Below, one piece after another: positions 20,777 through 53,610 of a stretch of DNA of 64,000 bases. Under the pieces are notes generated by a model. It was not told the DNA's origin. It searched no databases and saw only the letters and a program-made list of their open reading frames with translations. The stretch is from a virus. The position numbers and the translations under genes were made by a program. The stretch's first letter is position 1. Every line of letters starts with the position of its first letter. The stretch spans positions 1-64,000 of the IMG/VR virus record IMGVR_UViG_3300028654_000018; one strand, given 5' to 3'.

Positions 20777-20808
20777 AAAAAGAGAGGACGCTTATGTCCT
20801 CTCTTTTT
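20777..20808. terminator. bidirectional Rho-independent terminator
   Basis: AAAAAGAGAGGAC, loop GCTTAT, GTCCTCTCTTTTT: a 13-bp stem with A and T tracts on both sides. It ends the transcript of the 109-aa gene to its right. Confidence 0.9.
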
Positions 20809-20827
20809 AATCAGTTATACTTCGATC

Positions 20828-21157
20828 TTATACGTTAGTCTTCTGCGTCTGTGTATTCTTGACATCAACGAGAACCAGAGCGGAACCGATGCCAACTGCA
20901 TTTGCAGCAGCTACAACACTATTGAGCCATGCTTCTGCATCTGCCATCGAACCAAGCTTTGTCCTGAACAATGTCTTGCTCGAACGACCTTCGATGAGCG
21001 TCAACGACTGAAACAATGGGCTTGTCTTCAACGTTTCAAGTTCTGCAACTCGCTTCTTCGACAAATAAACTTGGGCTTCTGCACCACCACGCTTACGAAG
21101 TTCTACACTAGCATGAACTCCACGCGAAATCTTCCTATGAACATATCTCTCCGACAT
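20828..21157 (-). CDS. basic hypothetical protein, 109 aa
   Basis: Single-gene unit: promoter at 21216-21243, strong AGGAG ribosome binding site, terminator at 20777. Basic N-terminus (SERYVHRKISRGVHASVELRK) and a helical Ala-rich C-terminus. The higher GC and isolated strong expression signals suggest an abundant product, perhaps nucleic-acid binding. No family recognised. Confidence 0.75.
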   Translation of the reverse strand: MSERYVHRKISRGVHASVELRKRGGAEAQVYLSKKRVAELETLKTSPLFQSLTLIEGRSSKTLFRTKLGSMADAEAWLNSVVAAANAVGIGSALVLVDVKNTQTQKTNV

Positions 21158-21215
21158 AACTTTTTCTCCTGTTTAATTATTAAGTAACAGCATTGTGCTA
21201 TTACCATCTACAATT

Positions 21216-21243
21216 AATATATCAGGTAATTATATAATGTCAA
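21216..21243 (-). promoter_or_regulatory. sigma70-type promoter
   Basis: TTGACA (21238-21243), 16-nt spacer, TATATT (21216-21221), about 60 nt upstream of the 109-aa gene. Confidence 0.6.
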
Positions 21244-45028: not shown

Positions 45029-45931
45029 TTACATCCACTTCATTAAGAAAAAGTTCATATCATCTTCGCTTTCAAAGACCCAGACTTCATTATACATGCC
45101 CATTAGAAGAAATCTTTTTTCTAATGTTGTTCTACACCAGGCACAGACTTCTTTTAATTTTTCAAGATATGCTAAATCATATTTTGACATATTTACAGTA
45201 GAAGTAGAAAAAATATTAAGAGTTCCCCACGCAGATTTATTTACCGCATCCGCAATACCAGTGCATAGTTCTCCGGGCAATGTATACACATTATCCCATT
45301 CGCGTGTAATATGTTTTAAATTTTTGCCATATAATATATATCGAACTGCATTTTTAAGTTCGACTACATTAGTGGTTTCACTAAATTCAAATGCATCTTC
45401 CGGCGATACTTTATCGATGATATGTTCTTTAAAAAATGCATCAAAAGCAGCTAGTGATCTAAAATATAAATCATACATATTTGTTTCATATGATATTTCG
45501 CATAATTTTATCGAAGAATATTCATTCGATGATAAATTATTAAGAGCTTTTTTCGACTTTGCGTACTGTTCCATGGACATTTGTAGTGTTAGTCTAAAAG
45601 GAAACTCAGTTAATAATTTTTCTCGTTTATTTTGAATGGTTATAATCGACAATGCTTTTTTCTCATTATATGGTTTAGTAAGATAGAGTAATGAAGATGA
45701 TCGATTTTTATGATATTTTATAAATGCTCTTTTTCTAGTAAAAAGCATATTAATAAATGGATCATAATCATCATTTTCTTTATCTACAAGATGCTCTATT
45801 ACTTTATTGAATTCTTTTTCACCCTTAGACAAATTAGCATGACTAAGCGGCGTAATATTACCATATCCGCGTAGCATTGCAATCAGACAATTGCTATAAC
45901 TAGAATTTTGAGATGGCTCGAATGTTATCAT
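45029..45931 (-). CDS. large DxAxF-tail-related protein, 300 aa
   Basis: Ends NEVWVFESEDDMNFFLMKWM, the family tail with Met/Asn replacing Ala. The N-terminal 220 residues are helical and unlike other members; SLAAFDAFFKEHI may be an internal, degenerate copy. Overlaps the ABC transporter gene by 4 nt. Confidence 0.6.
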   Translation of the reverse strand: MITFEPSQNSSYSNCLIAMLRGYGNITPLSHANLSKGEKEFNKVIEHLVDKENDDYDPFINMLFTRKRAFIKYHKNRSSSLLYLTKPYNEKKALSIITIQNKREKLLTEFPFRLTLQMSMEQYAKSKKALNNLSSNEYSSIKLCEISYETNMYDLYFRSLAAFDAFFKEHIIDKVSPEDAFEFSETTNVVELKNAVRYILYGKNLKHITREWDNVYTLPGELCTGIADAVNKSAWGTLNIFSTSTVNMSKYDLAYLEKLKEVCAWCRTTLEKRFLLMGMYNEVWVFESEDDMNFFLMKWM

Positions 45932-47646
45932 TTTTCTTTTAACTTTTTATTCTTCAATATTAATTTATGTGTGTGAAATTTATCTATAGTCTTTCTATGA
46001 CCAACACTTATTATAGTAGTCTTAGGTAGTTTTGCCAAAAGTAATTTATAACTAACTTGCTCACTTTCTTCGTCCATCGAACTAGTGGATTCATCGAGAA
46101 ATAGAAAGTCGGGCTTCTGTAATATAGCGCGAATGAATGCAATTTTTTGTTTTTGGCCGCCCGATAATATTTTGTTCCAGTCAGCTTCCTTAAGAATATC
46201 ATCTCGGAGATCATGTAAACCAATTTCATACATCAACTGTTGTATTTCTGCCCGATCAAAAAGTATTTGCAAAACTGTTTTTCCTTTAGTATCTGGAGAA
46301 TTTCCCGGATAACATATAACATCCAGTAATGTTCCCAATGGCATATAGGAATTCTGACTAATGAACATTTGCGTCTTATTTGTTGGCATATTGATTGTTC
46401 CCAACGCATATGGCCAAATATTCGCAATACATCTTAATAGTGTACTTTTGCCTGTGCCATTTGCGCCAGAGATAACATATCTTCCTGTAGTTTTGAAGTT
46501 AAACGTAGCATTATCAAGTAATACGCCATTGTTAGGCAATGAAATTGTGAAGTTCTTGATACCAAATATTTTTTTATTAATGAATTTCACTTTTTTATTA
46601 TGATCTAATTCTTGCCAATCATTGACTGCCGTTTCAAAACCATTTAAACGATTTATCACGGCGCGATAATTTGCTAAATTTGTAAAGCTATCGACAAACC
46701 ATGCCAAAGAACTTTGAACACTGTCGAATGCACTTGCTGTTTGCATTAATCCACCAAGTTTAATAGCTCCAGAGAAAAACCTCGGCGCACTTACGAGATA
46801 GGGAAATATCACGGCTATTTGTGAAAAATAACTCGACCACCAATTCAAATGCTTTTGTTTTGTATTAATTTTGTTGAAGTTATCGAAGACAAAAGAAAAT
46901 CGTTTCATAAATCCTTTCTTCTCAAATTTTTCTCCCTTATACAGAACAATGCTTTCACTATTCTCTCTTGTTCGCATCAAACTATAACGAAAGTTGGCTT
47001 CGAATTGCTCTTGAATGAAACTAAGACCAGGAAGTTTTTTACCGATCTTTCTCGTTACGAACGTTCCAAATACTGAATAAACTAATACTCCCCACACAAG
47101 ATAATGTCCGATGAATATTTCATGCCCCATCAAAGTGAAAGTTATGCTGTCACTTAATCCCCACAATATAAAAATGAAGCTAAAGAACGTTACAACAGAA
47201 CTTAATAGTCCGAGACTTAACGACAAGCTTAAAACAACGAATGAGTTGATATCTTCACTTATACGTTGGTCTACGTTATCGGCACTTGATGAAAGAAATT
47301 GGGAACCGTAAAATGTTTTTGTTTTAAGCCACGTTTCTAGATTTTTCTCTGTGAGCCAATTTCTCCACGTAATCTGTAATTTTTGAAAAAAGTAAGATTT
47401 ATACCCGTATATACCAACAAATATTAATGCTAGTATCATAAATTTCTTAATATAGTACAAGAAAGCTGGTTGGTCTAAATTTTGTAAACTATCATAAAAG
47501 CCATTGCGCCAGCTATTAAACTGCACATTTAAATATACGAGTGTCATTTCCATTGCAATGATCGAAACTAATAAAAATATAGGTTTCCATCTATTTGGAT
47601 TCGTAACAAAAAAAGCTTTCCAGTATTTTACGATTGATTTAAACAT
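45928..47646 (-). CDS. SbmA/BacA-YddA family ABC transporter, full length
   Basis: 572 aa half-transporter with fused ATPase. N-terminal membrane domain with about six spans and the family signature NVQFNSWRNGFYDSLQNLD...FYYIKKF-like and ITWRNWLTEKNLETWL; C-terminal ATPase with GANGTGKSTLL (Walker A), LSGGQKQKIAF (signature), PDFLFLDESTSSMDEE (Walker B) and SVGH (H-loop). Members in bacteria handle peptides, cobalamin or fatty acids; rhizobial BacA takes up host peptides. All catalytic motifs are intact. A complete ABC transporter in a phage is exceptional. Confidence 0.93.
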   Translation of the reverse strand: MFKSIVKYWKAFFVTNPNRWKPIFLLVSIIAMEMTLVYLNVQFNSWRNGFYDSLQNLDQPAFLYYIKKFMILALIFVGIYGYKSYFFQKLQITWRNWLTEKNLETWLKTKTFYGSQFLSSSADNVDQRISEDINSFVVLSLSLSLGLLSSVVTFFSFIFILWGLSDSITFTLMGHEIFIGHYLVWGVLVYSVFGTFVTRKIGKKLPGLSFIQEQFEANFRYSLMRTRENSESIVLYKGEKFEKKGFMKRFSFVFDNFNKINTKQKHLNWWSSYFSQIAVIFPYLVSAPRFFSGAIKLGGLMQTASAFDSVQSSLAWFVDSFTNLANYRAVINRLNGFETAVNDWQELDHNKKVKFINKKIFGIKNFTISLPNNGVLLDNATFNFKTTGRYVISGANGTGKSTLLRCIANIWPYALGTINMPTNKTQMFISQNSYMPLGTLLDVICYPGNSPDTKGKTVLQILFDRAEIQQLMYEIGLHDLRDDILKEADWNKILSGGQKQKIAFIRAILQKPDFLFLDESTSSMDEESEQVSYKLLLAKLPKTTIISVGHRKTIDKFHTHKLILKNKKLKEK

Positions 47647-47651
47647 AATTT

Positions 47652-48092
47652 TTATTTTTCATCTGAGGGGGAATATGACTGTGTATATGATATATTATTT
47701 TTAATCTCAGAAGCAAGAGATATTTTTTCTATAAGTTTCTTAAAACACTTCTTTCTATTGATTTGCCAGTTCTTACTATTTCTTGGCATATCTAAATGCC
47801 ACATATATTCAATCTTCGCTGATATCACTGCACTATCAGTCTCATTATCATTCGTAAAAATCATATCAATTGCATTGATTGCCTTTATAAAGTCCACAGT
47901 GACTGTATCGAAATTATTTTCTAACAAAATTCTTAGTATTTTTTTACCTTCATCATTGTGGCGTTTTATTTTGGAAAAATAATCTTTTAACGCATCGTAC
48001 AGCAACTTAATTAAAAACCCAGATAAGAGCGTTATCGTGTGTGCCGTGGGCTTATGATTTTCTAAAATATCAGAAATAAAATCTATATTCAT
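47652..48092 (-). CDS. hypothetical protein with N-terminal membrane segment, 146 aa
   Basis: Hydrophobic segment TITLLSGFLIKLLYDAL followed by KIKRHNDEGKKILRILLEN and EYMWHLDMPRN...WQINRKKCFKKLIEKI. Resembles bacterial DUF6680-type proteins (helix, AWxxYxxHL-like, C-terminal helix), of unknown role. 4-nt overlap with the agmatinase gene. Confidence 0.55.
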   Translation of the reverse strand: MNIDFISDILENHKPTAHTITLLSGFLIKLLYDALKDYFSKIKRHNDEGKKILRILLENNFDTVTVDFIKAINAIDMIFTNDNETDSAVISAKIEYMWHLDMPRNSKNWQINRKKCFKKLIEKISLASEIKNNISYTQSYSPSDEK

Positions 48093-48982
48093 TTAACATC
48101 CATCAGTGAGATCATATTCCACATTATAGTAGCGCCAGCCAATGCAGTAATCTGCGATACATCGTATGCCGGACATACTTCGACAAGATCAGCGCCGATC
48201 AATTTCTTATTTTTAGAATGAAGTTGTTTCATAATTTCCATAATCTGCCATGTGAACAAACCGCCGACTTCTGGCGTTCCTGTTCCTGGCGCTTGTGATG
48301 CATCGAGACAGTCAATATCAAATGTCATATACGTTGGCAAACCATCCGTAGATTGAATAATATCGTCGGCCAGATCATCCAAATTCATTTTATGAACCGT
48401 TGATGCGTTATATTGAATGATTCCTCTATCTATTAGCCAGTCATTGTTGCTTTTTGGAGAAGATGAACGAATTCCAATTTGAACTATGCGTTCTGGATCT
48501 ACTAATCCATCTTCAATTGCCAATCTTAAAAAATTTCCGTGATTGGGCGTTTTACCTTCGTCCCAAGCATCAATGTGCGCATCGAAATGAACGAGCGACA
48601 TTTTCCCATATTTTTTATAATGCGCTTTAAGAATCGGATAGGTAATTGTGTGGTCGCCACCCATAGAAATAAGTTTTGTTTTATCGACTAGCTTTGTAAA
48701 ATCTGATTCCAGCATTGCTATTGGTACTACTCGGTCGATTTCAACGTCTCCGATGTCTCCTACATTTTTTAAAATGTCGTCATATGACATATCTGTATAT
48801 GGATTGCGGCCGTCGCATAGCATTGCGCTTGCATCACGAATAGCAGTTGGTCCCAATCTCGCGCCGGGTCTATTTGACGTTCCGAGATCATAACAAACTC
48901 CGACGGTTGATATAGGTTTATGACCGACAGGACCTACTGAAGTTTTCATAAAAGAACGTATGCCAGTGTAAGTATTCGTCAT
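48089..48982 (-). CDS. agmatinase/arginase-family ureohydrolase
   Basis: 297 aa. GGDHTIT, HFDAHIDAWDE and TFDIDCLDASQAPGTGTPE supply the His and Asp ligands for two Mn ions; RPGARLGPTAIR matches the family start. The PGTGTPE form is usual in agmatinases, which release urea from agmatine to give putrescine. Putrescine could neutralise packaged DNA or feed base modification. Guanidino substrate not certain. Confidence 0.9.
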   Translation of the reverse strand: MTNTYTGIRSFMKTSVGPVGHKPISTVGVCYDLGTSNRPGARLGPTAIRDASAMLCDGRNPYTDMSYDDILKNVGDIGDVEIDRVVPIAMLESDFTKLVDKTKLISMGGDHTITYPILKAHYKKYGKMSLVHFDAHIDAWDEGKTPNHGNFLRLAIEDGLVDPERIVQIGIRSSSPKSNNDWLIDRGIIQYNASTVHKMNLDDLADDIIQSTDGLPTYMTFDIDCLDASQAPGTGTPEVGGLFTWQIMEIMKQLHSKNKKLIGADLVEVCPAYDVSQITALAGATIMWNMISLMDVK

Positions 48983-49602: not shown

Positions 49603-49677
49603 GTTCCTGTAGCTTAACGGTTAAAGCAGTAATCTCTAAAATTATCAATGTCGATTCGATTTCGACCAGGAACACCA
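49603..49677 (+). tRNA. amber-suppressor-type tRNA, anticodon CTA
   Basis: Acceptor GTTCCTG/CAGGAAC with A73 and encoded CCA; D-arm GCTT-AACGGTTA-AAGC; anticodon arm GTAAT-CTCTAAA-ATTAT; T-arm GTCGA-TTCGATT-TCGAC. Anticodon at 49636-49638 is CTA, reading UAG. Canonical G18G19 and TTC. Only plus-strand tRNA in the window. Identity of the charged amino acid unknown. Confidence 0.88.
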
Positions 49678-50183: not shown

Positions 50184-50515
50184 TGAAAACAGAAACACAA
50201 TATATCTATGTCTTTGTTCGCAAAGATATGCTTGTTGAGTTTCAGATTGTTCAAGCTTGTCACGCATCGTGCGTGGCAGGCGAACAGTTTGGTGGTAGTA
50301 ATTCACATATGGTATTGCTAGGACTCTCTGGGCCAGATGAACTTGAATCTCTTACAGCATGGTTACAAGTTTATAAAATTCCATTTGTTACATTTTTTGA
50401 ATCAGATGATAATATGGGTAATTCTGCCGTAGCTACTTCTCCTATATCTGGAGAATCACGTAAAAATATTAAAAAAATAATCGATGATATGAAACTCGTT
50501 CTATGGAAATTATAA
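50183..50515 (+). CDS. peptidyl-tRNA hydrolase 2-like protein
   Basis: 110 aa. YIYVFVRKDMLVEFQIVQACHAS, HMVLLGL...DELESLTAWLQVYKIPFVTFFE and NSAVATSPIS follow the Pth2 order (RxDL, Q...AHA, ELxxL, GIP, TAxAxxP). Pth2 frees tRNA from peptidyl-tRNA. Next to a suppressor-type tRNA and the tRNA clusters it may recycle phage tRNAs. Related small phage proteins are often annotated simply as conserved. Confidence 0.72.
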   Translation: MKTETQYIYVFVRKDMLVEFQIVQACHASCVAGEQFGGSNSHMVLLGLSGPDELESLTAWLQVYKIPFVTFFESDDNMGNSAVATSPISGESRKNIKKIIDDMKLVLWKL

Positions 50516-52389: not shown

Positions 52390-52474
52390 TGGTGCCCCGT
52401 GAGAGATTTGAACTCTCATCCTTTCGGACCAGATCCTAAGTCTGGCGCGTATATCCAGTTCCGCCAACGGGGCA
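52390..52474 (-). tRNA. tRNA-Leu (anticodon TAG)
   Basis: Class II tRNA with acceptor GCCCCGT/ACGGGGC, CCAGA-CTTAGGA-TCTGG anticodon arm, long variable arm and TTCAAAT T-loop. D-loop has GG: canonical elbow. CCA encoded. Confidence 0.95.
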
Positions 52475-52520: not shown

Positions 52521-52595
52521 TGGCACCGCCGCTCTGGTTCTGCCCCGAGGATTTCAGTTTTGGAGACTGATATGATACTATTTCATCACAGCGAT
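52521..52595 (-). tRNA. tRNA-Trp (CCA), non-canonical elbow
   Basis: Acceptor ATCGCTG/CGGCGGT, G73, CCA; D-arm ATGA-AATAGTA-TCAT (A18, G19); anticodon arm TCAGT-CTCCAAA-ACTGA; T-loop GGCAGAA (G54, G55, C56, G58) on a bulged stem. Lacks the TTC and GG hallmarks. Confidence 0.8.
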
Positions 52596-52600
52596 ATAAA

Positions 52601-52675
52601 TGGTCTAACGTTCGGAATTTGCATCCGATTCTCCGGCTTCACGGGCCAGGGGTTTACTTCATAACCTAACGTCAG
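52601..52675 (-). tRNA. tRNA-His (GTG), non-canonical elbow, C33, A73
   Basis: Acceptor CTGACGT/ACGTTAG with A73 and CCA; D-loop ATGAAGTA (A18, G19); anticodon loop CCGTGAA (C33); T-arm TCGGA-TGCAAAT-TCCGA (G55, C56). A73 is characteristic of alphaproteobacterial tRNA-His. Confidence 0.82.
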
Positions 52676-52708: not shown

Positions 52709-52784
52709 TGGTGGGTAGTCTCCGAATCGAACGGAGTTTTTTGGTTCTTCAAACCAACGCTATTACCAAATCAGCTAACTGCCC
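52709..52784 (-). tRNA. tRNA-Phe (GAA)
   Basis: GGGCAGT/ACTACCC (one C-A mismatch), D-loop with GG, TTGGT-TTGAAGA-ACCAA, T-arm CTCCG-TTCGATT-CGGAG, CCA encoded. Canonical elbow. Its 5' end nearly touches the tRNA-Pro 3' end. Confidence 0.92.
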
Positions 52785-52785
52785 G

Positions 52786-52857
52786 TCGCCCATGCAGGCG
52801 TCGCACCTGCCGCTGCATGATTCCAAATCATACCGATCACTCCGATCTTTATGGGCG
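52786..52857 (-). tRNA. tRNA-Pro (TGG), non-canonical elbow, CCA not encoded
   Basis: CGCCCAT/ATGGGCG, A73 then CGG, so CCA must be added. Anticodon arm TATGA-TTTGGAA-TCATG. D-loop CGGAGTG (A18, G19), T-arm GCAGG-TGCGACG-CCTGC (G55, C56). One nt from tRNA-Phe. Confidence 0.8.
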
Positions 52858-52897: not shown

Positions 52898-52974
52898 TGG
52901 TGAATCTGGTGAGATTTTAACTCACGATATCTCGATTAAGAGTCGAGTGCTTTAAACGACTAAGCTACAGATTC
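52898..52974 (-). tRNA. tRNA-Lys (CTT) with U19-A56 elbow
   Basis: GAATCTG/CAGATTC, CTCGA-CTCTTAA-TCGAG, T-arm GTGAG-TTAAAAT-CTCAC, D-loop AGTCGTTTA. With G18 and U19 in the D-loop, U55 and A56 in the T-loop still pair. Confidence 0.9.
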
Positions 52975-52985
52975 ATGCACTAACT

Positions 52986-53062
52986 TGGTAGGAGTAGAGG
53001 GATTTGAACCCATCCTAATCCGGTTTAAAAGACCGGCCCACAAACCACTATGACATACTCCC
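52986..53062 (-). tRNA. tRNA-Lys (TTT)
   Basis: GGGAGTA/TACTCCT, CCGGT-CTTTTAA-ACCGG, T-loop TTCAAAT on a weak stem, GG in D-loop, CCA. Canonical elbow. Confidence 0.9.
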
Positions 53063-53067
53063 GTAAT

Positions 53068-53145
53068 TGGCGCGTCTGGCGGGATTTGAACTCGCACTAT
53101 GTTGGGTTCGAAGCCCAATGCCCTATCCAGTTGGGCGACAGACGC
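53068..53145 (-). tRNA. tRNA-Arg (TCG)
   Basis: GCGTCTG/CAGACGC, D-arm GCCC-AACTGGATA-GGGC, TTGGG-CTTCGAA-CCCAA, T-loop TTCAAAT, G73, CCA. Canonical. Confidence 0.95.
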
Positions 53146-53153
53146 ATAAAAAA

Positions 53154-53241
53154 TGGCTCGCTAGGTTCGACTCGAACGAACAGTGCCTATTAAGGACGGA
53201 AGATTAACAGTCTTCTGGGGTTACCATTTTCCTACTAGCAA
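53154..53241 (-). tRNA. tRNA-Asn (GTT) with enlarged variable arm
   Basis: TTGCTAG/CTAGCGA, G73 and CCA as in bacterial tRNA-Asn; GAAGA-CTGTTAA-TCTTC; T-arm GTTCG-TTCGAGT-CGAAC. The variable region is about 17 nt (contains CCT-TAAT-AGG) instead of 5, and the D-stem is weak. A class II shape on an Asn tRNA is unusual. Confidence 0.85.
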
Positions 53242-53248
53242 ATAAACT

Positions 53249-53335
53249 TGGTCCGTAGTGTGGGATGTGCGCCCACTCACTCCTGCGAGAACTGGGTTAC
53301 AGCCGGTTGCAACTCTCTCACTTTGCCGCCTACGG
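53249..53335 (-). tRNA. tRNA-Tyr (GTA), non-canonical elbow
   Basis: Class II. CCGTAGG/ACTACGG with one mismatch, A73, CCA; D-arm GCAA-AGTGAGAGAG-TTGC; anticodon loop CTGTAAC; T-arm GTGGG-CGCACAT-CCCAC (C54, G55, C56, C58). Confidence 0.82.
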
Positions 53336-53374: not shown

Positions 53375-53407
53375 CAAAAAAGCCCGAAACTTTCGTTTTC
53401 GAGCTTG
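53375..53407 (-). terminator. Rho-independent terminator
   Basis: AAGCTCGAAAAC, GAAA tetraloop, GTTTCGGGCTT, then TTTT on the minus strand. Ends the unit starting at the promoter at 53582. Confidence 0.85.
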
Positions 53408-53433
53408 GTATTCTGAAAAATGTTTTCTAAGTT

Positions 53434-53575
53434 TTACATTTTTTGCACGCAGAATAGCAAGCCCGATTGTGGATAATTGGGTTTATGAAACGGACGGAAG
53501 AGTTGCCAGTTCAAGTTGCTATATGTTTGCTGCGTAATCATAATATTATTTATCTTTCATATGTAATAAGTCATT
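53434..53575 (-). ncRNA. candidate structured RNA (or 35-aa ORF)
   Basis: Lies between a sigma70 promoter (53582-53610) and a terminator (53375-53407). Nested complementary segments: CTGCGT/ACGCAG outside, TTGCTAT/ATAGCAA inside (about 53452-53535), and a 7-bp hairpin CCCAATT/GATCGGG-type within. A 35-codon frame (53434-53541) spans the same region with a weak ribosome binding site, so a small protein is the alternative. Confidence 0.5.
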
Positions 53576-53581
53576 TAAACG

Positions 53582-53610
53582 ACTATATCGTATAATCTTC
53601 TATCTGTCAA
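53582..53610 (-). promoter_or_regulatory. sigma70-type promoter of the structured-RNA unit
   Basis: TTGACA (53605-53610), 17-nt spacer, TATAGT (53582-53587). One of the best matches to consensus in the window. Confidence 0.7.

What the first reader, a model, noticed from the sequence alone, without database searches (positions are those of the whole stretch)
53375..53610. Stand-alone transcription unit for a structured RNA or micropeptide
Near-consensus promoter (53582-53610) and a strong terminator (53375-53407) bracket about 170 nt with nested helices (ACGCAG/CTGCGT, ATAGCAA/TTGCTAT, and a 7-bp inner hairpin). A 35-codon frame coincides with it but has a weak start. The unit is inserted within the tRNA cluster. 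It does not look like a tRNA.
Basis: partly seen in the sequence, partly recalled or inferred. Interest (0 to 1): 0.75.

Follow-up and report, generated by a model that had tools for sequence, protein, structure and literature searches.

The report
Attenuator switch controlling phage tRNA genes
This stretch looks like an RNA switch at the head of a block of transfer-RNA genes in a giant phage: a short test peptide appears to sense whether the matching transfer RNAs are running low and, if so, lets the block be transcribed, and other phages carry the same arrangement with test peptides spelled to match their own transfer-RNA genes.

Summary
The promoter, terminator, nested helices and 35-codon frame are all present. 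The interpretation changes: this is not a stand-alone unit but the leader of a ten-gene tRNA operon (Tyr-Asn-Arg-Lys-Lys-Pro-Phe-His-Trp-Leu) that has no evident promoter of its own. In a folding model a ribosome stalled at codons 1-15 releases the terminator; no ribosome, or one further on, lets it form (0/500 shuffles do this).

The decisive evidence is comparative. The same layout precedes tRNA arrays in Salicola phage SCTP-2, in 634-642-kb phages and in 43 of 80 IMG/VR loci fetched by DNA pattern alone (0 of 80 bacterial/archaeal genome loci). Leader peptides spell the amino acids of the tRNAs that follow: MTTSFQQQQQQQINRTD before four tRNA-Gln; ILSLCLSLSLSL before Leu-Leu-Ser-Cys-Ser (permutation 0/100,000). 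I found no published description. The window's leader matches its operon best of 53 leaders, but it lacks a sequence homologue, a Shine-Dalgarno and typical codon usage, so its translation is inferred.

The parts
53582..53610 (-). sigma-70-type promoter TTGACA-17-TATAGT; predicted transcription start near 53575
   Evidence: 11 of 12 matches; one of 11 such sites in the window, both strands
53434..53541 (-). 35-codon leader ORF MITQQTYSNLNWQLFRPFHKPNYPQSGLLFCVQKM*, stop included
   Evidence: frame read directly; contains Tyr, Asn, Arg, Lys, Pro, Phe, His, Trp and Leu, the nine amino acids of the downstream tRNAs; best match to this operon among 53 phage leaders. No Shine-Dalgarno; codon usage unlike phage genes
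   Evidence: not significant by itself (p 0.16)
53446..53466 (-). segment 2: UCGGGCUUGCUAUUCUGCGUG; pairs with segment 1 or with segment 3
   Evidence: 0/3000 shuffles match the 2:3 duplex
53399..53415 (-). segment 3: CAGAAUACCAAGCUCGA; pairs with segment 2 (antiterminator) or its 3' half with segment 4 (terminator)
53397..53466 (-). antiterminator 2:3 hairpin as a whole: 9 + 7 + 8 bp, -23.8 kcal/mol
   Evidence: z -5.8, 0 of 1000 shuffles
53375..53406 (-). intrinsic terminator (3:4 hairpin) and U-tract
53249..53335 (-). tRNA-Tyr (GTA), first gene of the controlled operon
   Evidence: ARAGORN at relaxed threshold
53154..53241 (-). tRNA-Asn (GTT)
53068..53145 (-). tRNA-Arg (TCG)
52986..53062 (-). 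tRNA-Lys (TTT)
52898..52974 (-). tRNA-Lys (CTT)
52785..52857 (-). tRNA-Pro (TGG)
52709..52784 (-). tRNA-Phe (GAA)
52601..52675 (-). tRNA-His (GTG)
   Evidence: ARAGORN at relaxed threshold
52524..52595 (-). tRNA-Trp (anticodon CCA read by eye)
   Evidence: Rfam tRNA match, 32.3 bits; sequence
52390..52473 (-). tRNA-Leu (TAG), last gene of the run

Best explanation
The region is a ribosome-mediated transcription attenuator that controls a phage tRNA operon. RNA polymerase starts near 53575 and makes a leader with a 35-codon ORF. If the leader peptide is translated without delay, the ribosome covers segment 2, segment 3 pairs with segment 4, and transcription ends at 53375. If nobody translates, 1:2 forms and the terminator again forms. 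If the ribosome waits for a scarce aminoacyl-tRNA within about the first 15 codons (ITQQTYSNLNWQLF), it covers segment 1, segment 2 pairs with segment 3, the terminator cannot form, and the Tyr-Asn-Arg-Lys-Lys-Pro-Phe-His-Trp-Leu genes are transcribed. The phage would thus make these tRNAs on demand. Shown by computation: the sequence elements, the mutually exclusive helices, the placement, and cognate leaders in other phages. Inferred: transcription, translation of this leader, and the response to tRNA shortage.
For: Alternative hairpin z -5.8, 0/1000 shuffles; 2:3 duplex 0/3000. The two states are nearly isoenergetic, -34.1 and -32.8 kcal/mol. Stall model: P(terminator) 0.98 without ribosome, at most 0.15 for codons 1-15, at least 0.94 from codon 16, stable over three of four footprints, 0/500 shuffles. 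No promoter-like site between terminator and tRNA-Tyr. Same layout in front of tRNA arrays: SCTP-2 x4, LR756502.1 x2, LR745206.1 x2, LR756504.1, and 43 of 80 IMG/VR loci. The bare DNA pattern has a tRNA within 600 nt downstream on the same strand in 50/80 viral loci (1 upstream, 0 opposite strand) but in 0/79 genome loci, P 2e-20. Leader peptides match their own operons: 24 non-redundant leaders, 0/100,000 permutations, including two leaders found after the rule was stated: poly-Gln before four tRNA-Gln, and a His/Lys/Phe/Ser/Trp-rich leader before His-Phe-His-Phe-Trp-Lys-Lys-Lys-Lys-Arg-Ser. In a homologous group of 21 sequences both 2:3 and 3:4 show double compensatory changes; 24 leader ORFs keep their peptide through in-frame indels, pN/pS 0.54.
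Against: No sequence homologue of this particular leader was found, so covariation and codon selection are shown only in other phages. Its codon usage is worse than 99% of real gene fragments and there is no Shine-Dalgarno, though many genes of this phage lack one too. Its match to the operon is broad (nine amino acids) and on its own only suggestive (P 0.05 to 0.007, computed with a nearly identical amino-acid set). The 1:2 helix is not significant alone. The equilibrium model gives no switch for several other leaders, e.g. two of the four in SCTP-2. No expression data.
Confidence: 0.86

Rival explanations
1. A conditional terminator with the same two alternative structures, but sensed by something other than a translating ribosome, such as a phage antitermination protein or another ligand. 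The ORF would be incidental.
For: Mutually exclusive 2:3 and 3:4 are strong while the ORF has poor codon usage and no Shine-Dalgarno.
Against: In the other phages with the same layout the leader peptides are composed of the cognate amino acids and are conserved as peptides. The window's ORF overlaps segments 1 and 2 and ends in the loop of 2:3, where the attenuation model needs it.
Confidence: 0.08
2. A stand-alone stable small RNA in a tRNA cluster, comparable to the stable RNAs of unknown function in the phage T4 tRNA cluster.
For: Own promoter and terminator; GC of the core is 45% against 36% for the window.
Against: Fold of the described structure is near chance; no relatives as an RNA; the operon below the terminator has no other evident promoter; the recurrent context is always upstream of tRNAs on the same strand. 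A terminated leader would, however, look like a small RNA on a blot.
Confidence: 0.04
3. An ordinary inter-tRNA spacer with a terminator for the tRNA-Ala transcript and a chance promoter and ORF.
For: tRNA-Ala has its own promoter-like site at 53744-53716 and could end at 53375.
Against: 2:3 helix 0/1000 and 0/3000 shuffles; strongest and only clearly significant competitor near a tRNA gene among terminators of this window; same layout repeated in other phages.
Confidence: 0.02

Closest known systems
Ribosome-mediated attenuators of amino-acid biosynthetic operons (trp, his, phe, thr, ilv of enterobacteria; mechanism summarised in PMC1183508)
   Same: Promoter, short leader ORF with regulatory codons, mutually exclusive 1:2, 2:3 and 3:4 helices, intrinsic terminator, controlled operon downstream.
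   Different: Controls tRNA genes instead of enzymes and is carried by phages. The leader often samples several or many amino acids, matching a multi-tRNA operon. Not a sequence member of the Rfam leader families (best sub-threshold hits Phe_leader E 2, Trp_leader E 1.1).
T-box riboswitches
   Same: Sense the charging state of tRNA and switch a terminator.
   Different: Here there is no T-box or specifier structure (no Rfam hit) and sensing would go through a translating ribosome.
Leader-peptide attenuators of antibiotic-resistance genes (for example bmrCD, mef/mel, PMC4191407 and PMC4335068)
   Same: Ribosome position on a short ORF decides between terminator and antiterminator.
   Different: There drug-stalled ribosomes are the signal; here cognate codons point to aminoacyl-tRNA supply.
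Stable RNAs of the phage T4 tRNA cluster (from memory)
   Same: Non-tRNA RNA inside a phage tRNA cluster.
   Different: Those are processed stable RNAs without the attenuator layout, as far as I know; no sequence relation was tested.

Membership tests
ribosome-mediated transcription attenuator | promoter followed within about 200 nt by an intrinsic terminator ahead of the controlled genes | tested here: met
   promoter 53610-53582, terminator 53406-53375, tRNA-Tyr at 53335
ribosome-mediated transcription attenuator | antiterminator (2:3) that excludes the terminator (3:4) | tested here: met
   0/1000 and 0/3000 shuffles; covariation of both helices in another phage group
ribosome-mediated transcription attenuator | 1:2 helix that excludes 2:3 | tested here: inconclusive
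   predicted with P 0.94 but not beyond chance by itself (p 0.16)
ribosome-mediated transcription attenuator | leader ORF spanning segments 1 and 2, with stop placed so that a finishing ribosome covers 2 | tested here: met
   ORF 53541-53434; stall model
ribosome-mediated transcription attenuator | control codons cognate to the product of the operon | tested here: met
   family level: 0/100,000 permutations over 24 leaders. Window alone: best of 53 leaders but modest P
ribosome-mediated transcription attenuator | leader is translated; expression rises when the cognate aminoacyl-tRNA is scarce | not testable with these tools
   peptide conservation in a related group is indirect support
Rfam Trp_leader, Phe_leader, Thr_leader | score above the curated cut-off | tested here: not met
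   13 to 17 bits against cut-offs of 41 to 55
T-box riboswitch | match to the T-box family model | tested here: not met
   no hit in the window or in ten related loci
tRNA | tRNA covariance-model or ARAGORN match | tested here: not met
   no RF00005 hit at E up to 10; ARAGORN finds nothing at thresholds of 80% or above
stand-alone small RNA | transcript independent of the neighbouring genes | tested here: inconclusive
   no other promoter for the downstream tRNAs; no expression data

The most novel reading that the evidence does not exclude
Phages widely use leader-peptide attenuators as on-demand sensors of tRNA supply: the block of tRNA genes is switched on only when the matching host tRNAs are depleted or cleaved, so the arrays act as an induced repair kit, possibly against tRNA-cutting host defences, rather than as a constitutive codon-usage supplement.
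Probability: 0.35. Interest if true: 0.95.

Novelty: new variant of a known kind. Interest (0 to 1): 0.87.

Why it matters
Why and when phages express their tRNA genes is a long-standing question, usually answered with codon usage. A leader peptide that spells the tRNAs to follow gives a direct, testable answer: the phage measures the supply of each aminoacyl-tRNA and switches on the matching genes. It extends ribosome-mediated attenuation from amino-acid biosynthesis to tRNA genes and to viruses. It also offers a simple rule for reading which tRNAs a phage expects to lose. Many short 'hypothetical proteins' in front of phage tRNA arrays (e.g. SCTP-2 genes 335, 351, 364) would be leader peptides.

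Tried and rejected
Direct homologues of the unit: blastn against phages and plasmids, tblastn of the 35-aa frame, neighbouring genes as anchors and two helix patterns in viral contigs gave nothing real. The first helix pattern excluded the window's own spacing by mistake and was repeated; all three helix-pattern hits are chance matches inside coding repeats or genes. The idea that the fold itself is special was rejected: whole-unit z is -1.3. The idea that the frame is an ordinary small gene was rejected on codon usage. A first reading of one tRNA as Cys was corrected to His. The 1:2 index used was wrong and was recomputed, which then timed out before its shuffle control; the control is. Attenuators were not detected in front of the tRNA arrays sampled from RaK2, Munch, 121Q or Vibrio phage 2.275.O; weaker candidates in Atu_ph07, Phosso, CBB and XbC2 were not followed. 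The same scan of the rest of this record (to base 68507) found no second one. The idea that the KHLP-group leaders match their arrays one to one was not tested, because those arrays encode nearly all amino acids.

Full report
WHAT WAS CHECKED. The finding lies on the minus strand of a 68.5-kb virus record whose DNA polymerase is about 40% identical to those of jumbo phages such as Atu_ph07, Phosso, CBB and RaK2. The promoter (53610-53582, 11/12) and terminator (53406-53375) are as stated. Nothing in Rfam matches. The 35-codon frame has codon usage unlike the phage's genes.

The terminator 3'-arm sequence TCGGGCTT occurs a second time upstream (9/3000 shuffles). Folding without the last arm reveals a 24-bp hairpin, 53466-53399, with an extra inner helix 53443-53416, -23.8 kcal/mol, z -5.8, 0/1000 shuffles. 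So three structures compete: 1:2, 2:3 and 3:4. The states 1:2 + 3:4 and 2:3 differ by only 1.3 kcal/mol. Among ten terminator-like hairpins of the window tested, only this one and the one at 3949-3922 (p 0.01) have a significant upstream competitor.

OPERON CONTEXT. Below the terminator, tRNA-Tyr begins about 45 nt away. Nine more tRNA genes follow on the same strand; Tyr and His were found only at a relaxed ARAGORN threshold, and Trp as an Rfam hit whose anticodon was read by eye. No promoter-like site lies between the terminator and Tyr.

RIBOSOME MODEL. With a ribosome footprint placed on each codon in turn, the equilibrium probability of the terminator is 0.98 with no ribosome, at most 0.15 when codons 1-15 are in the A site, and at least 0.94 from codon 16 to the stop. 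The boundary moves by one or two codons with footprints of 24 to 32 nt; a 20-nt footprint gives two exceptions, one inside the early block and one just before the stop. None of 500 shuffled leaders shows this pattern. This is the logic of classical attenuation as set out in PMC1183508. It is a thermodynamic model; co-transcriptional kinetics were not modelled.

RELATED LOCI, FIRST ROUND. I scanned the tRNA regions of ten related or tRNA-rich phages for terminators whose 5' arm has a significant upstream competitor. Salicola phage SCTP-2 gave three, each 25-35 nt in front of a tRNA operon, two of them with a promoter 175-187 nt upstream; the window has 175. The ORFs in them are: MNSNTMNNNVNTSINEMNISVDHNIAMHNDHINNDIDMSWRVLI before Asp-His-Met; MINASTTNIAKSMIGKAAKVSFKGGFVWAFSFKKASGQRGFLE before Lys-Phe-Trp; MNALTRTFTLTITTRSSERTSEVRSTERETVGERKGV before Ser-Glu-Thr. 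These three ORFs are annotated as hypothetical genes 335, 351 and 364. A fourth precedes tRNA-Leu. The 642-kb phage LR756502.1 has MKTMNLNMNLNTLTVVNNTLCIRPCEGFDLFNDL before Asn-Asn-Leu-Val-Ile-Thr-Val-Thr-Leu.

RELATED LOCI, SECOND ROUND. A DNA pattern for the 2-3-4 layout only (GGGTTTT, AAAACCC, GGGTTTTTT with gaps; no tRNA asked for) was run on IMG/VR and, as a control, on bacterial and archaeal genomes. tRNAs lie within 600 nt downstream on the same strand in 50 of 80 viral loci (1 upstream, 0 on the other strand) and in 0 of 79 genome loci, P 2e-20. In 43 of the 80 viral loci the full conditional terminator stands in front of the array, against 0 of 80 genome loci. No Rfam family other than tRNAs was found in ten of these loci.

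LEADERS MATCH THEIR OPERONS. For 22 non-redundant leaders the own-operon match exceeded permuted pairings in 20,000 of 20,000 permutations. I then fetched further regions of the huge phages and ran the same finder. It gave two new cases: MTTSFQQQQQQQINRTD before tRNA-Gln x4 in LR756502.1, and MTTNSTHKNFSKSHKWFSNQSFGTESVLSLN before His-Phe-His-Phe-Trp-Lys-Lys-Lys-Lys-Arg-Ser in LR745206.1. With these the set is 24, 0/100,000 permutations reach the observed match, and the result stands without the window. LR756504.1 has MKAMILSLCLSLSLSLQKLGVVGVCKVIS before Leu-Leu-Ser-Cys-Ser. The window's leader scores 0.62 on its own operon, more than any of 52 others (best 0.55, mean 0.46). Because this operon covers nine amino acids, that alone would be weak (which used Cys in place of His).

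SELECTION. A homologous group of 24 leaders (for example MKSLNISRQLNKHLPLLSGWTCTRPEINVSYAFDRGGFGK) stands mostly before arrays that begin Gln-Lys-His-Phe-Ile. The peptide aligns through in-frame insertions and deletions, pN/pS 0.54 in close pairs (only 15 close pairs). In the DNA alignment of 21 members, 2:3 pairs in 93% of cells with double changes at four pairs, and 3:4 pairs in 97% with a double change in nine sequences; sliding the partners by 1-3 columns destroys both.

LIMITS. The window's own leader has no relatives in the collections I could search. Its translation, the transcript and the response to tRNA shortage are inferred. The equilibrium model shows no switch for some related leaders, such as two of the four in SCTP-2, perhaps because 2:3 forms first during transcription. 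The leader for each locus was chosen by rule (longest ATG frame ending 15-45 nt before the terminator), and the last eight residues were left out of the match score because they overlap segment 2.

LITERATURE. Ten full-text searches of an open-access library and two papers read for the point gave no description of attenuators in front of phage tRNA genes. Subscription papers and preprints were not covered, so novelty is stated with that reserve.

VERDICT. Observation confirmed; interpretation changed from stand-alone RNA to attenuator leader of a tRNA operon. It works like the classical ribosome-mediated attenuators and meets their sequence-level criteria, except that 1:2 is inconclusive here; what is controlled, and the phage context, appear new.

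Noticed in passing
61039-61391 (-): Full-length bacterial type A RNase P RNA, 276.7 bits, in a phage; absent from 16 related or comparison records. A phage-encoded RNase P RNA next to tRNA arrays could serve tRNA maturation.
   Followed up: partly
49603-49677 (+): tRNA with anticodon CTA (named Pyl by ARAGORN), possibly an amber suppressor, on the strand opposite to the other tRNAs.
   Followed up: no
L110, L073, L138, L142 and other loci of the KHLP group: The predicted -10 box ends only 6-7 nt before the leader ATG in many members, so the leader peptide would be translated from a leaderless mRNA.
   Followed up: no
20777-21243 (-): Strong promoter (21243-21216) and a strong terminator (20808-20777) about 430 nt apart, with a stable fold at 20879-20950; perhaps another unannotated transcript.
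   Followed up: no
3949-3922 (-): A second terminator with a significant upstream competitor helix (p 0.01), between two genes.
   Followed up: no
50221-50322 (+): Most stable 72-nt fold of the window, -33 kcal/mol.
   Followed up: no
45928-47646 (-), 48089-48982 (-): SbmA/BacA-like ABC transporter and an arginase-family gene in a phage.
   Followed up: no
59105-59578 (+), 61829-62440 (-): Shikimate-kinase-like protein and a bacterial sugar transferase in the tRNA region.
   Followed up: no
L067:3426-3508 (-): tRNA-Sec model match just above cut-off in an IMG/VR phage contig with a tRNA attenuator.
   Followed up: no
L306:5722-6670 (record bases about 65721-66669, outside the window): More tRNAs (Ser, Cys, Gln, Asn) beyond the window's end; the scan found no attenuator in front of them.
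   Followed up: partly
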